From Roseibium limicola (GTDB lineage Bacteria > Pseudomonadota > Alphaproteobacteria > Rhizobiales > Stappiaceae): a stretch of DNA of 64,000 nucleotides. The stretch is from NCBI RefSeq assembly GCF_017313085.1, contig NZ_JAFLNF010000005.1:310001-374000 (forward strand). Reading direction: 5' to 3'. The position numbers and the translations under genes were made by a program. The notes beneath the pieces are model-generated. The model was not told where the DNA came from. It did not search any database and saw only the letters and a program-made list of their open reading frames with translations. Shown here piece by piece: positions 57,778-62,842 of the stretch. Position 1 is the stretch's first letter, and each line of letters begins with the position of its first letter.

Positions 57778-57811
57778 ACTGAATTTATCTTGAAAATGAG
57801 CCTCAAACAAC

Positions 57812-57847
57812 AAAACGCCCGCCGGGGGAGGAGCCGGCAGGCGTTTT
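57812..57847. terminator. Terminator hairpin whose minus-strand loop is CTCCTCCC
   Basis: AAAACGCCCGCCGG (57812-57825) pairs with CCGGCAGGCGTTTT (57834-57847) with one mismatch, and the loop reads GGGAGGAG (plus) or CTCCTCCC (minus). T-runs on both sides let it end the lipoprotein gene and the DUF1127 transcript coming from the right. Confidence 0.8.
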
Positions 57848-57869
57848 AAGGGTTCCGCTTAAAGCGGAT

Positions 57870-57966
57870 GGGAAGATCCCCGTGGGAGGGTGCGGGTACT
57901 TCCCGAAGACACCTGGGCGTTTGCTGCGACCCGGAGTGTCTTGTTTTCCTCTGATTGCCTCAGAGG
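57870..57966 (-). ncRNA. Structured 3' region of the first DUF1127 gene (candidate sRNA)
   Basis: Between the DUF1127 stop and the terminator, three hairpins occur on the minus strand: 57948-57966 (CCTCTGA/TCAGAGG), 57906-57942 (AAGACAC/GTGTCTT) and 57870-57904 (GGGAAG/CTTCCC, with CCCTCCC in the loop region). With the terminator they make a compact RNA of about 200 nt. By analogy with Rhodobacter CcaF1/CcsR loci this may be an sRNA processed from the mRNA. Confidence 0.45.
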
Positions 57967-58018: not shown

Positions 58019-58168
58019 TTAGCGGGTTGCGGAACGCGCGAAGTAGGAAAGTTCGCCACGGTTGATGCCGAGGTCCTGCAGTTCGCGGTTCGAAAGCTGG
58101 GACAGCTCATCGTAAGTCGTCCGGTAACGCTTCCAGGTCTGGTACTTGCGCACGAATGTGTCGAGCAT
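58019..58168 (-). CDS. DUF1127 small protein (CcaF1-like), copy 1
   Basis: 49 residues from the ATG at 58168. The family core is clear: YQTWKRYRTTYDELSQLSNRELQDLGINRGELSYFAR, with a short basic N-terminus (MLDTFVRK). DUF1127 proteins have 40-60 residues and many Arg; CcaF1 of Rhodobacter sphaeroides binds RNA and affects sRNA maturation. The 3' region is structured and ends in a terminator with a CTCCTCCC loop. GGAAAGA precedes the start. The gene stands alone on the minus strand. Confidence 0.88.
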   Translation of the reverse strand: MLDTFVRKYQTWKRYRTTYDELSQLSNRELQDLGINRGELSYFARSATR

Positions 58169-58440
58169 GATCTTGTCTTTCCAAAAGTGTGTGTGTCTGT
58201 GGCGTTGCGGGGGGCTTAACCGCGCCGGCAGCGCCAAATTCGATAGACCTGAAATAGGCCCGTGGCCGGTGATTTAAAAGAGGGCTTTTTGCAGTGCAGC
58301 TCTGCATAAAATGCAGGCCTTGCGCACACAAAACAGCCAATAAGAGCGAAACGGTCCGATGAATCCGAATTGAGGACATTGCGGTGCACAATTGATGGTC
58401 AATTGTCCCGGGGGCGGTCACCCCAACACCACTCCCCAAC

Positions 58441-58945
58441 ACCTCTCCGTCCTCCTCGGGCTTGTCCCGAGGATCCAGGCCGTTGCGCTTCGGCAGACGC
58501 GGGACTGTCGAGGGCGGCAAGGGAACGGCATGGATGCCATGGTCGAGCCACGGCATGACGCGGGGAGATGGGTCGCGCGTCGAAGAACTGAGAAGCGAAC
58601 GGTCAGAAATCTGACGCCAGTCCCAGAAATCCCGGCTCCCAATCACCTCTCCGTCATCCTCGGGCTTGACCCGAGGATCCACGCCGTTGCGCTTCGGCAA
58701 ACGCGGGGCTGTCGAGGCGGCAAGGGAACGGCATGGATGCCATGGTCGAGCCATGGCATGACGCGGGGAGATGGGTCGCGCGTCGAAGATCTGGGAATCG
58801 AACGGTCAGAAATCTGACGCCAGTCCCAGAAATCCCGGCCCCCAAACACCTCTCCGTCATCCTCGGGCTTGTCCCGAGGAGCCACGCCGTTGCGCTTCGG
58901 CAGACGCGGGGCTGTCGAGGCGGCGAGGGAACGGCATGGATGCCG
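58441..58945. repeat. Tandem repeat, about 2.5 copies of a ~204-bp unit with palindromes
   Basis: The landmark ACCTCTCCGT recurs at 58441, 58645 and 58848 (periods 204 and 203). Each copy has ATCCTCGGGCTTG.CCCGAGGATC and GGCATGGATGCCATGG..CCATGGCATG palindromes. The last copy is cut short. The block lies between the first DUF1127 gene and the 3' end of the sRNA array. The stretch 58169-58440 before it holds only the DUF1127 leader. Confidence 0.9.
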
Positions 58946-59063: not shown

Positions 59064-59490
59064 CCGGGCTCTGAAAAAACGAACGCCTGCCACTGGGAGG
59101 AGGTAGTGGCAGGCGACGTTTTTGACGATGGTGAGACTGGGAGGAGGTGTCTCACCTTGCCGCACGTCCCTGGAGCCTGGGAGGAGGTAGCTCCTGAGGA
59201 CGCGATCCGAATTTCAAAATGTCGCCTGCCACTGGGAGGAGGTAGTAGCAGGCGACTCTTTTGACGATGGTGAGACTGGGAGGAGGGTGTCTCACCGTGT
59301 CGCACGCCCCTGGAGCCTGGGAGGAGGTAGCTCCTGAGGACGCGATCTGAATTTCAAATGTCGCCTGTCACTGGGAGGAGGGTGTGACAGGCGACCTTTT
59401 GACTTAGGCGAAGCTGGGAGGAGGATGCTTCGCCGTGTCGCACGTCCCTGGAGCCTGGGAGGAGGTAGCTCGTGGGGACGCGATTTCTAG
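59064..59490 (-). ncRNA. Array of nine CCTCCTCCC-loop hairpins (three sRNA units) downstream of DUF1127 copy 2
   Basis: On the minus strand nine hairpins lie head to tail, every one with loop CCTCCTCCCAG: stems at 59450-59472, 59407-59434, 59361-59394 (unit 1), 59312-59334, 59269-59296, 59222-59255 (unit 2), 59172-59194, 59130-59156, 59084-59115 (unit 3). Units repeat every 138-140 nt with a conserved AAATTC-GATCGCGTCC linker. Stems differ in sequence between hairpin types but pair well (for example GGTGAGAC/GTCTCACC, and the change of GGCGAAGC is matched by GCTTCGCC). The last hairpin is followed by TTCGTTTTTTC, a terminator. The loop is complementary to ribosome-binding sites, the mark of CcsR/'cuckoo' sRNAs. 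Confidence 0.8.
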
Positions 59491-59493
59491 TGA

Positions 59494-59643
59494 TTAGACC
59501 AGAGCCTGACGGGCCACCGAGCGGATGTCGCCACGGTTGATGCCCAGATCGCTCAGTTCACGCTGCGACAGACGGGAGAGCTCATCTACCGTGCGACGGT
59601 ACTGAACCCAGTTGCTGTACTTGCGTGCTACGTTGCCAATCAT
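59494..59643 (-). CDS. DUF1127 small protein (CcaF1-like), copy 2, leading the hairpin array
   Basis: 49 residues from the ATG at 59643, with AAGGA 9 nt upstream. Sequence core: WVQYRRTVDELSRLSQRELSDLGINRGDIRSVARQ, the DUF1127 domain, with a short N-terminus MIGNVARKYSN. It is highly basic. The nine-hairpin array begins 22 nt past its stop with no terminator between, so both are likely one transcript, as for CcaF1 and CcsR1-4 in Rhodobacter. The 230 bp upstream, towards uvrA, contain a TATAGT-type -10 (near 59711) but no clear -35; heat-shock or EcfG control was not resolved. Confidence 0.9.
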   Translation of the reverse strand: MIGNVARKYSNWVQYRRTVDELSRLSQRELSDLGINRGDIRSVARQALV

Positions 59644-59875
59644 TGTCTCAATCCTTCTGTGACGCGCTGCAGCATTTGTTTATTGCGCCGCGTCATCGCT
59701 GTGTTGAGAACTATATAATTTGGCGTTCGAAATAATAGAAGCGCGAATTCCGCATGTCAGTCATGCGTATAACGCAACGCACCATTTTCGAGGAATGAAA
59801 AGTCAGTCGGACGCTGCGGAATCTGATGAAAGCGGAGGGGAATTCAACGAAAACCCTCTCCGTTGCATTGCACAA

Positions 59876-62842
59876 TTATTCTGCTGCGTCGGTCTTGCGC
59901 ATGGGTCTGCGCGACAAAAGCTCCGCCAGAAACTGCCCTGTGTAGCTGGATTCGACCTCGGCGATGTCCTCTGGACGCCCGGTGGCAACAATCGATCCGC
60001 CGCCGTCGCCGCCCTCTGGTCCGAAGTCGATGACCCAATCCGCCGTCTTGATGACTTCCAGATTGTGCTCGATCACCAGCACCGAGTTGCCCTGGTCCAC
60101 CAACTCATGCAGCACCTCCAGCAGCTTCGCAACATCGTGGAAATGCAGGCCGGTGGTCGGTTCATCCAGAATATAGAGCGTCCGCCCGGTTGAGCGGCGT
60201 GCCAGCTCCTTGGCAAGCTTCACCCGTTGCGCTTCCCCGCCCGACAGTGTCGTTGCCTGTTGGCCGACCTTGATGTAGCCAAGACCAACGCGGGCCAGGG
60301 TTTCCATCTTGTCGCGAATCGAGGGAACGGCAGAAAAGAATCCGGCGGCTTCTTCCACTGTCATGTCCAGCACGTCGGCGATGGACTTGCCCTTGAACAA
60401 GACTTCCAGGGTTTCCCGGTTGTAGCGCTTGCCCTTGCAGACATCACAAGCGACGTAGACGTCGGGCAGGAAGTGCATCTCGATCTTGATGACGCCGTCG
60501 CCCTGACAGGCTTCGCAGCGGCCCCCTTTGACGTTGAAGGAAAAGCGGCCCGGAGCGTAACCGCGGACTTTCGATTCCGGCAGGCCGGAGTACCAGTCGC
60601 GAATATAGGTGAAGGCGCCCGTATAGGTGGCCGGATTGGAGCGCGGCGTCCGCCCGATCGGCGACTGGTCGATGTCGATCACCTTGTCCAGGTGTTCCAG
60701 CCCTTCGATCCTGTCATGCGGCGCCGGTGTGGCGCGCGCACCGTTCAGCTTTCGGGCTGCGGCCTTGAACAGGGTATCGATCATGAAGGTCGACTTGCCG
60801 CCGCCGGAAACGCCGCTGATGCAGGTGAACGTGCCGAGGGGCACATCCACATCGATGTTCTTCAGATTGTTGCCGCGCGCACCCTTGACCGTGACCTTGC
60901 GGGTCTTCTTGATCTTGCGGCGCTCTGGCGGGCTGGGGATCTGCAAGGCGCCGGTCAGATATTGTCCCGTCAGCGAGTTTGGATGCGCCATTACTTCCGC
61001 TGGCGTGCCGCTGGCGATGATCTGGCCGCCGTGGATGCCGGCACCGGGCCCCACATCCACCACATGATCGGCGGAAAGAACGGCGTCTTCGTCATGCTCG
61101 ACAACAATGACGGTGTTGCCGAGGTCACGCAGATGCTTCAACGTGTCGAGAAGCCGGGCGTTGTCGCGCTGGTGCAGTCCGATGGATGGCTCGTCGAGCA
61201 CATAGAGCACGCCGGTGAGGCCCGATCCGATCTGCGAGGCAAGACGAATGCGCTGGCTTTCGCCGCCCGACAAGGTGCCGGATGCGCGCGACATGGAAAG
61301 ATATTCCAGGCCAACATCATTCAGAAACCGCAGGCGCTCGCGGATTTCCTTTAGGATTCGCTCCGCGATCTCGCGTTGCTTTGCAGTGAAGCCGTCGTCA
61401 ATCGTCTCGAACCACTGACCCGCGTCGCGGATGGCGAAACCGGTGACTTCACCGATGTGCAGCCCCTTGATCTTCACCGCCAGGGCTTCCGGCTTCAGGC
61501 GAAAACCGTTGCAGGCCGGGCAGGGGTGGTTGGCCTGATAGCGCGAGAGCTCCTCGCGTACCCAGTTGCTTTCCGTTTCGCGCCAGCGCCGTTCGATGTT
61601 GCCGATGATACCTTCGAAGGGCTTCTCGCTCTTGTAGCTGCGCGCGCCATCGTCATAGGTGAAGGTGACCTTCTCCTTGCCGGTGCCATGCAGAATGGCC
61701 TGATGCGCCTCAACCGGCAGATCCTTCCAGGGAGCTGCCATGGAAATGTCGAGGTGGTCGGCGAGTGCTTCCAGCGTCTGCGCGTAATAAGGTGAGGTCG
61801 AGCCGGTCTTCGCCCACGGCAGAATGGCGCCTTCGCGCAACGACAAGGACGTGTCGGGCACGACGAGATCCGCCTCGAAGGCCAGGGTGCTGCCCAGTCC
61901 GTCACAGGTTGGGCAGGCGCCGAAGGGATTGTTGAATGAAAACAGCCGCGGCTCGATTTCCGGAATGGTGAATCCGGACACCGGGCAGGCGAATTTTTCC
62001 GAGAACACCAGCCGTTCGTGAGTTTCGTTGCGGTTCTGCAGAACGGCGCCGTCACGGGCGTCCGGCAGCGGCTTGTCGGCCAGTTCGGCAACAGCAATGC
62101 CGTCAGCCAGCCCCAGTGCGGTCTCGAGGGAATCCGCCAGACGTCCCGCGATATCATCGCGCACGACTATTCTGTCCACGACCACGTCAATGTCGTGCTT
62201 GTACTTCTTGTCCAGCGCCGGTGCTTCGGCAATTTCATGGAACTCGCCATTGATCTTGACCCGCTGAAAACCCTTCTTCATCAGCTCGGCCAGTTCCTTG
62301 CGGTACTCGCCCTTGCGGCCACGTACGATCGGCGCCATCAGGTAGAGCCGGGTGCCTTCTTCCTGCTCCAGGATCCGGTCGACCATCTGGGAGATCGTCT
62401 GGCTCTCGATCGGCAGGCCGGTGGCCGGCGAATGCGGAACCCCGACGCGAGCAAACAGCAGACGCATGTAATCGTAGATCTCGGTCACCGTGCCGACGGT
62501 GGAGCGCGGGTTCTTCGAGGTGGTTTTCTGCTCGATGGAAATGGCGGGCGACAGGCCATCGATCTGGTCGACGTCCGGCTTCTGCATCATGTCGAGAAAC
62601 TGGCGAGCGTAGGAGGACAGGCTCTCCACATAGCGGCGCTGGCCTTCGGCGTAGATCGTGTCGAAGGCGAGAGAGGATTTGCCCGACCCCGACAGACCGG
62701 TCATGACGATCAGGCTGTTGCGCGGAAGATCGATATCCACATTCTTCAGGTTATGCTCACGCGCACCCCGCACGCTGAGGACCTTGGTGGCATCTGGGCG
62801 CGTGAGCGCGGCACCTGAGGTGCGGGCGGTATCCTTGGTCAT
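59876..62842 (-). CDS. uvrA: Excinuclease ABC subunit A
   Basis: 988 residues. Two ABC ATPase modules are present: Walker [10 protein letters not shown] (about 49-57) and GVSGGGKST in the second half; signatures LSGGESQR and LSGGEAQR; Walker B VLDEPS and ILDEPT. Zinc modules show CPVSGF..CPTCDG, CPACNG and [17 protein letters not shown]. UvrA2 with UvrB finds bulky DNA damage in nucleotide excision repair. It is divergent from ssb across 711 bp that carry a LexA box, as in many alphaproteobacteria. Confidence 0.97.

What the first reader, a model, noticed from the sequence alone, without database searches (positions are those of the whole stretch)
59064..59643. DUF1127 gene followed by nine CCTCCTCCC-loop hairpins: an expanded CcaF1/CcsR-type sRNA locus
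The minus strand encodes a 49-residue DUF1127 protein and, 22 nt after its stop, nine hairpins in three ~138-140 nt units. All nine loops contain CCTCCTCCCAG, while stem sequences vary with pairing kept, which shows the loop is under selection. A T-run closes the last hairpin. Rhodobacter sphaeroides has four tandem CcsR sRNAs with the same motif downstream of the DUF1127 gene ccaF1. Here the unit has three hairpins instead of the two I recall for CcsR, so it appears to be a different expansion. The multi-loop RNA could mask ribosome-binding sites or sequester CsrA/Hfq-like proteins.
Basis: partly seen in the sequence, partly recalled or inferred. Interest (0 to 1): 0.92.

Follow-up and report, generated by a model that had tools for sequence, protein, structure and literature searches.

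The report
DUF1127 gene with triple αr14 sRNAs
A tiny bacterial gene is followed by three tandem copies of a known three-hairpin regulatory RNA whose nine identical loops look made to cover ribosome-binding sites; similar layouts occur in relatives, and the promoter carries a site resembling that of a known stress regulator.

Summary
In detail: on the minus strand a 49-residue DUF1127 gene is followed by nine hairpins in three ~139-nt units, every loop CCTCCTCCCAG, with a T-run after the last. "Expanded CcsR" is wrong at the RNA level. Each unit matches Rfam αr14 (NfeR1 family; three such hairpins are its normal form) over its full length at 55-58 bits (cutoff 58.8), against 17-23 bits for CcsR1 (cutoff 65.3); sibling units at the same locus in the same genus pass the αr14 cutoff. 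DUF1127 plus CcsR-like RNAs is a published association (CIN1). In the genus 40 of 44 loci have one unit, one has two, three have three. Not found in print in my searches: the DUF1127 promoter carries an LsrB-type box (TGCR-N6-GCAT, 43 of 44 genus loci) at the same 64-nt distance to the -10 end as two αr14 genes of S. meliloti; the genome encodes LsrB; a VtlR-like motif precedes 69 of 79 arrays of a mainly Rhodobacterales group. Best reading: one LsrB-activated transcript gives a DUF1127 mRNA and three αr14 sRNAs that block strong Shine-Dalgarno sites. Transcription, cleavage and binding are inferred.

The parts
59754..59776 (-). LsrB/VtlR-type activator site: TGCG-N6-GCAT (59763-59776) overlapping GCAT-N3-TG-N3-T (59754-59766)
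   Evidence: TGCA-N6-GCAT in 42 of 44, TGCR-N6-GCAT in 43 of 44 genus upstreams; 9 and 14 of 738 window pieces by chance; motifs from passages of PMC10746234 and PMC7486931
59736..59741 (-). likely -35 element CTTCTA
   Evidence: conserved block in the genus alignment; CTT at this place in 37 of 41. The consensus scan did not call it; it called CTGACA-N17-TATTAT at 59760-59732, which overlaps the box
59713..59718 (-). likely -10 element TTATAT, 17 nt after the -35; start of transcription inferred near 59706
   Evidence: box start to -10 end is 64 nt in 38 and 63 nt in 3 of 41 genus loci measured
59494..59643 (-). DUF1127 small protein gene (49 aa)
   Evidence: PF06568, 1.5e-15
59356..59483 (-). 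αr14-like sRNA unit 1 (three hairpins)
   Evidence: RF02344 55.1 bits, model 1-123
59346..59355 (-). A/U-rich linker GAAATTCAGA, possible cleavage site
   Evidence: sequence; cleavage inferred
59217..59345 (-). αr14-like sRNA unit 2
   Evidence: RF02344 58.2 bits
59205..59216 (-). A/U-rich linker TGAAATTCGGAT, possible cleavage site
   Evidence: sequence; cleavage inferred
59078..59204 (-). αr14-like sRNA unit 3; its last hairpin read as the terminator stem
   Evidence: RF02344 58.3 bits; terminator is my reading, the scan (loops of 3-8 only) does not list it on this strand
59074..59079 (-). T-run after the ninth hairpin
   Evidence: sequence
58019..58168 (-). second DUF1127 gene (49 aa)
   Evidence: PF06568, 4.6e-14; two or more DUF1127 genes on the strand in 44 of 44 genus loci
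57810..57910 (-). diverged αr14-like unit after the second DUF1127 gene, loops degenerate
   Evidence: RF02344 48.5 bits, below cutoff; loops read

Best explanation
This is a CIN1-type operon: one promoter with an LsrB/VtlR-type activator site drives a transcript that encodes a small DUF1127 protein and carries three tandem αr14 (NfeR1-family) sRNAs in its 3' part, ending after the ninth hairpin. Cleavage in the A/U-rich linkers, probably by RNase E as reported for ccaF1-CcsR, would release three ~127-nt sRNAs. Each shows three single-stranded anti-Shine-Dalgarno loops that pair with GGGAGGAG-type ribosome-binding sites and block translation, mainly of uptake and catabolic genes. Tripling the unit raises the dose of the same redundant motif. 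Shown here: anatomy, homology of the units, covariation, conservation of promoter elements, presence of an LsrB gene. Inferred: cotranscription, cleavage, LsrB binding, targets, dose effect.
For: Full-length αr14 matches; sibling units above cutoff at this locus in G044 and at DUF1127 loci of three Mesorhizobium species and one Nitratireductor; covariation with invariant loops; DUF1127 gene followed by the units in 44 of 44 genus loci, beside uvrA in the 12 of 12 genus loci checked for it (uvrA and trmFO named); TGCR-N6-GCAT in 43 of 44, box start to -10 end 64 nt in 38 of 41 and also 64 nt at both tandem αr14 genes of S. meliloti, where LsrB binding at -72 to -57 is published; it is the only site in the genome matching the extended genus block without mismatch; LsrB gene next to trxB, 417 bits to 9HH1 against 113 for the next chain (9HH1 is LsrB); no promoter-like site called between the units; GGGAGGAG-N3-11-ATG 38 matches against 8 for the pattern read backwards.
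Against: All three units fall just below the αr14 gathering score. The window's own box has G for A in TGCA. The Brucella VtlR motif scores 12 or more of 15 in only 8 of 44 genus upstreams, one of 30 scrambled motifs reached 19 of 44 there, and the window's best is 10 of 15 at another place. The consensus promoter scan calls another core site. In the S. meliloti record the three αr14 copies have no DUF1127 match in the 1500 nt upstream. The excess of substrate-binding proteins among predicted targets is weak (5 of 18 against 1 of 10 controls), not tested statistically, and an excess of such sites before ATG is expected of any strong Shine-Dalgarno sequence. No expression data.
Confidence: 0.72

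Rival explanations
1. A CcsR locus of the Rhodobacter kind that gained a third hairpin per unit, under RpoH control.
For: Same loop motif, DUF1127 gene upstream, tandem units; PMC3927594 suggests grouping the RNAs as one family with varying hairpin number.
Against: CcsR1 model 17-23 bits against a cutoff of 65.3, while αr14 reaches 55-58 over its full length; related loci pass αr14; the conserved promoter block is an LTTR-type box with a sigma-70-like core.
Confidence: 0.1
2. The array stays one long 3' UTR that acts in cis (stability or termination of the DUF1127 mRNA, or binding of the DUF1127 protein) and is not cut into sRNAs.
For: Only the last unit has a T-run; no promoter-like site called between the units; CcaF1 is reported to bind RNA (PMC10253847).
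Against: Unit length and structure match free αr14 sRNAs; identical loops with varying stems point to trans base pairing; one unit suffices in 40 of 44 genus loci.
Confidence: 0.13
3. The loops act as a protein sponge (CsrA- or Hfq-like).
For: Many identical exposed loops.
Against: C-rich loop (no resemblance to a CsrA site that I recall), Hfq independence of NfeR1 and tested base pairing of these loops with a ribosome-binding region in S. meliloti (PMC10746234).
Confidence: 0.04

Closest known systems
αr14 sRNA family (Rfam RF02344; NfeR1/Smr14C2 of Sinorhizobium meliloti)
   Same: Three hairpins with CCUCCUCCC loops, length, full-length covariance match; LsrB-type box with the same 64-nt distance to the -10 end.
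   Different: Here three units in tandem behind a DUF1127 gene with one promoter; the three S. meliloti copies examined have no DUF1127 match in 1500 nt upstream, and NfeR1 is reported with its own sigma-70 promoter.
ccaF1-CcsR1-4 operon of Rhodobacter sphaeroides (CIN1 locus)
   Same: DUF1127 gene followed by tandem sRNAs with the same loop and a terminator at the end (PMC10253847 passages).
   Different: CcsR model has 83 positions and the R. sphaeroides transcript two stem loops; ccaF1 is reported with an RpoHI/RpoHII promoter and a 71-aa protein; here αr14-like units and a 49-aa protein.
AbcR/αr15 sRNAs
   Same: aSD loops; LsrB/VtlR control of AbcR1; an αr15-like RNA lies next to lsrB in this genome (28.1 bits, cutoff 40).
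   Different: Another family, not linked to DUF1127 here; the RNA next to lsrB also scores 26.6 bits with αr14, so its own filing is uncertain.

Membership tests
αr14 (RF02344) | Match to the family covariance model at or above the gathering score | tested here: inconclusive
   58.3, 58.2, 55.1 bits against 58.8, all over positions 1-123, E 1e-9 to 5e-9; at gathering gave 0 hits; sibling units in G044 61.4-70.3 bits
αr14 (RF02344) | Three hairpins each with CCUCCUCCC in the loop, stems variable | tested here: met
αr14 (RF02344) | LsrB-type site at about -72 to -57 (NfeR1) | tested here: met
   for the operon promoter; the window box has one changed base; units 2 and 3 have no promoter-like site called
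αr14 (RF02344) | ~123-nt transcript that represses targets through the aSD loops | not testable with these tools
   needs RNA experiments
CcsR (RF02791) | Match to the CcsR1 model | tested here: not met
   23.0, 18.7, 17.1 bits against 65.3; Rhodobacter locus L087 gave 100.1 bits, Rhodobacter locus L049 none above cutoff
CcsR (RF02791) | RpoHI/RpoHII-dependent promoter | not tested
   only the LTTR box and a sigma-70-like core were examined in this genus
CIN1 locus (DUF1127 + cuckoo RNAs) | DUF1127 gene directly upstream of CCUCCUCCC-hairpin RNAs, same strand | tested here: met
   the defining paper (PMC4615179) was not held, definition taken from a passage of PMC10253847
CIN1 locus (DUF1127 + cuckoo RNAs) | Cotranscription and processing of the sRNAs from the DUF1127 transcript | not testable with these tools
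   inferred from one promoter and one T-run
LsrB/VtlR regulon | Regulator encoded in the genome | tested here: met
LsrB/VtlR regulon | Brucella VtlR motif CAATGCAGCCATGCA before the gene | tested here: not met
   window best 10 of 15 elsewhere; genus 8 of 44 at 12 or more; the shorter VtlR box GCAT-N3-TG-N3-T is exact in the window and in 23 of 44
LsrB/VtlR regulon | Binding and activation of this promoter | not testable with these tools
   needs gel shift and reporter

The most novel reading that the evidence does not exclude
An LsrB/VtlR-type LysR regulator is the ancestral activator of DUF1127-aSD-RNA operons across Hyphomicrobiales and Rhodobacterales, ccaF1-CcsR relatives included, and the operon works as a dose-adjustable mimic of the ribosome's anti-Shine-Dalgarno sequence: loop number (3 to 17) sets how many strong-SD mRNAs are shut off under oxidative stress while the DUF1127 protein handles RNA processing. 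LsrB, described as unique to Rhizobiales, then has working orthologues in Rhodobacterales.
Probability: 0.35. Interest if true: 0.65.

Novelty: new member of a known kind. Interest (0 to 1): 0.42.

Why it matters
The locus itself is a well-conserved member of a published family. Its use is that it ties together three strands of literature: VtlR/LsrB activation of DUF1127 genes, LsrB activation of NfeR1, and the ccaF1-CcsR operon. Here the protein gene and the αr14 RNAs sit behind one LsrB-type promoter, and a VtlR-like motif also stands before 69 of 79 arrays examined in a mainly Rhodobacterales group. If right, this names a regulator for a whole class of operons, and the natural series in loop number (3 to 17) lets one ask whether aSD dose matters.

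Tried and rejected
Rejected: expanded CcsR; protein sponge (no support); own promoters for units 2 and 3 (none called); the fifth αr14 match of the genome at C12:215586-215700 (33 bits), which on reading is a lone terminator-like hairpin near a tRNA-like stretch (not run through a tRNA search). Rfam at gathering threshold gave nothing and alone would have misled.

Led nowhere or weak: whether DUF1127 genes with arrays avoid a GGAGG ribosome-binding site: 2 of 140 have it, 0 of 25 DUF1127 genes without arrays, about 59 of 1439 (4.1%) background ORFs that include spurious ones, so no array-specific effect is shown. Target classes: 5 of 18 against 1 of 10. For the target set there were 38 matches (two sites matched twice), 30 loci fetched, and the 18 distinct ORFs of 250 aa or more scanned; for the control 21 matches, 16 ORFs of 60 aa or more, 10 scanned. 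TGCA-N6-GCAT is also frequent upstream of the mainly Rhodobacterales arrays (69 of 77), but there it overlaps the TTGTGCA...GCAGCAT block, so I do not count it as the same site; in named Hyphomicrobiales it is in 7 of 13 upstreams, several of the rest being second genes of a pair. Before the second DUF1127 gene of the genus TGCA-N6-GCAT is in 22 of 47 and GCAT-N3-TG-N3-T in 0 of 47. trxB does not lie within about 4 kb of the LsrB-like gene in any of 6 Rhodobacterales genomes, against orthology by synteny; the reverse search was made for one of the six. The first pair count of the unit structure was misregistered and is replaced. RNAalifold leaves out the short inner stem of hairpin 1.

Of the 117, 9 have no array of three or more loops within 130 nt steps. 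For the promoter counts 13 were left out as other groups or without array (one of them, L121, a Croceicoccus MAG, does carry a DUF1127 array), 11 counted as Hyphomicrobiales by title (9 usable), 93 as mainly Rhodobacterales by title, some of them unplaced MAGs (79 usable; seven more were left out, giving 77). In the genus G033 had no αr14 match, so 44 of 45 genomes are counted. Three unit rows identical to others were dropped from the alignment (L016, L174, L190).

Full report
WHAT IS THERE. On the minus strand, 59494-59643 encodes a 49-residue DUF1127 protein (PF06568, E 1.5e-15). It follows uvrA (59876-62842, named) and is followed by nine copies of CCTCCTCCCAG between 59095 and 59465. Unit-to-unit spacing is 138-140 nt. 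The three units are 80-91% identical to each other. The transcript strand folds into nine hairpins with every motif in a loop, z-score -11.1, 0 of 100 shuffles as stable. A T-run stands after the ninth hairpin.

MORE THAN CHANCE. If left and right arms are exchanged between hairpins, stems collapse: in the window 10.4 pairs on average for true partners against 3.8 between hairpin classes (0 of 54 swaps reach 7; over all 72 swaps the mean is 5.25); over 1118 distinct hairpins from 159 loci, 13 loci left out, 10.2 against 6.0. On 48 distinct units of this genus 98.8% of cells pair, 21 of 27 pairs have changes on both sides, covariation score 0.353 against 0.197 in shuffles (0 of 500 reach it) and at most 0.108 when slid; the count of further pair types is not above shuffles. 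Rows are related, which the tool warns can exceed shuffles. The 9-mer of all three loops is invariant in all 48 rows.

WHICH FAMILY. Rfam at gathering level gives nothing. With an E-value threshold all three units match αr14 (RF02344) from first to last model position at 58.3, 58.2 and 55.1 bits, cutoff 58.8; CcsR1 (RF02791) gives 23.0, 18.7 and 17.1, cutoff 65.3. Above cutoff are three units at this locus in genome G044 (61.4-70.3 bits), four in tandem in G045 of the same family (71.3-76.3), and three each at DUF1127 loci of Mesorhizobium loti CJ3sym, M. soli, M. ephedrae and Nitratireductor aquibiodomus (83.5-99.7); of two Rhodobacter loci one gives CcsR1 at 100.1 bits and one nothing above cutoff. 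I file the units as αr14-like by homology to siblings that pass, while they themselves miss the curated score narrowly. Three hairpins with CCUCCUCCC loops are the published form of αr14 (PMC10746234, passages; PMC3927594, passages and section 2.7).

HOW COMMON. αr14 was found in 44 of 45 genus genomes and 85 of 87 of the family. At this locus 44 of 44 genus sequences have a DUF1127 gene followed by exact loops: three loops in 40, six in one (G001), nine in three (the window, G012, G044); all 44 have a further DUF1127 gene on the strand. uvrA lies beside it in the 12 of 12 genus loci checked, and trmFO beside named Hyphomicrobiales loci at 72-75% identity. G012 and G044 units pair off one to one (93-96% identical). 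In the window units 2 and 3 are closest (91%), and unit 3 is nearer to the second unit of G001 (85%) than to unit 1 (80%), so duplication happened more than once or copies are kept alike by conversion. Nine of 11 loci titled as Hyphomicrobiales have exactly nine loops in three-by-three spacing, in a scan that selected for such spacing; Wenxinia marina (Rhodobacterales) has 17. [quoted passage not shown] the original paper was not held).

PROMOTER. An alignment of 44 genus upstream regions shows a conserved block TTGCATTGCA...GCATG-C-G-CATGC, then CTTCTT-N17-(T/A)TATAT. TGCA-N6-GCAT, the LsrB site of S. meliloti PnfeR1 at -72 to -57 (PMC10746234, passages), is present in 42 of 44, and in 43 of 44 with TGCR; 9 and 14 of 738 window pieces have it by chance. 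Box start to -10 end is 64 nt in 38 and 63 nt in 3 of 41 measured. In an S. meliloti record the boxes before both tandem αr14 genes have the same 64 nt to the end of CTATAT. The window has TGCG instead of TGCA, and an exact GCAT-N3-TG-N3-T, the VtlR box proposed for Agrobacterium and Brucella (PMC7486931, passages); 23 of 44 have the exact form, 16 of 738 pieces by chance. In the whole genome this is the only match without mismatch to the extended block TGC-N7-GCATG-N-C-N-G-N-CATGC; with up to two mismatches there are 40 against 7 for the control. The consensus promoter scan did not call my core elements but an overlapping CTGACA-N17-TATTAT, so the start site is uncertain. The genome carries trxB (410 bits to TIGR01292) followed by a LysR gene with 417 bits to PDB 9HH1, which is A. 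tumefaciens LsrB, next chain 113 bits, followed by an αr15-like RNA (28.1 bits, cutoff 40). Genus rows are related, so counts overstate independence.

ACROSS ORDERS. With the Brucella motif as printed in PMC12595884 (passages), 12 or more of 15 bases match upstream of 69 of 79 arrays in the mainly Rhodobacterales group (3.2% of random pieces; 30 scrambled motifs mean 0.5, highest 8), 9 of 9 named Hyphomicrobiales (5.5%; scrambled highest 2), 9 of 18 family loci (4.7%; highest 3), but only 8 of 44 genus loci (3.7%; one scrambled motif reached 19). In the Rhodobacterales group the match is on the other strand than in named Hyphomicrobiales (68 of 69 against 0 of 9). Each of six Rhodobacterales genomes searched has one LysR protein at 44-46% identity and 248-257 bits, the next being 100-124; for one of them the reverse search also gives the LsrB gene first (254 against 114 bits); trxB is not nearby in any of the six. 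A published tree calls LsrB unique to Rhizobiales (PMC11975290, passages). The S. meliloti record CP090106.1 has two αr14 genes of 109 bits in tandem and a third of 87 bits; none has a DUF1127 match in 1500 nt upstream, while two DUF1127 matches lie about 0.6 and 1.1 kb after the tandem pair. So protein gene and RNA look like separable parts behind a shared kind of promoter.

TARGETS. GGGAGGAG-N3-11-ATG matches 38 times in the genome against 8 for the reversed pattern. Of 18 long ORFs scanned 5 are periplasmic substrate-binding proteins, others include two molybdopterin-binding oxidoreductases, two dehydrogenases and an MFS transporter; in the control 1 of 10. This fits published NfeR1/AbcR targets but is weak evidence.

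IN PRINT? No held open-access paper holds both DUF1127 and NfeR1 or both DUF1127 and CCUCCUCCC; searches and the passages read showed no statement of an LsrB/VtlR site before a DUF1127-αr14 operon. Subscription papers and PMC4615179, PMC8034643, PMC4402390 were not held, so this is no proof of absence. VtlR control of DUF1127 genes and of AbcR2 is published, as is LsrB control of NfeR1.

VERDICT. Real, well conserved, and a new member of a published kind. What may be new is the promoter and the link it makes, which is testable.

Noticed in passing
window 58434-58920: Two copies of a 203-bp repeat in tandem (96% identical), an 80-bp part of it in three copies (91-94%), between the two DUF1127 cassettes.
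   Followed up: partly
L065 (CP059262.1, titled Exiguobacterium profundum MAG): Carries a DUF1127 match, a CCTCCTCCC array and the Rhodobacterales-type promoter block; the record title is probably wrong.
   Followed up: no
L290 (CP090106.1): A 3.7-Mb record labelled S. meliloti pSymB that holds a uvrA-like stretch and tandem αr14 genes; it looks like the chromosome.
   Followed up: no
L196 (G045 C5:60000-63500): Four αr14 units in tandem (12 loops) after a DUF1127 gene, all above the Rfam cutoff.
   Followed up: partly
L155, L158, L159, L160, L161: Three DUF1127-hairpin cassettes in a row in genus g7 of the family.
   Followed up: partly
L005:1480-1603: αr15/AbcR-like RNA downstream of the LsrB gene in the window's genome, below the Rfam cutoff.
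   Followed up: partly
upstream of Rhodobacterales arrays: A second conserved block ATTGTGCA-N3-GCAGCA...CCATNTT about 10-15 nt after the VtlR-like motif, possibly the RpoH-type core promoter; seen in 77 of 93 loci by the anchor TTGTGCA.
   Followed up: no
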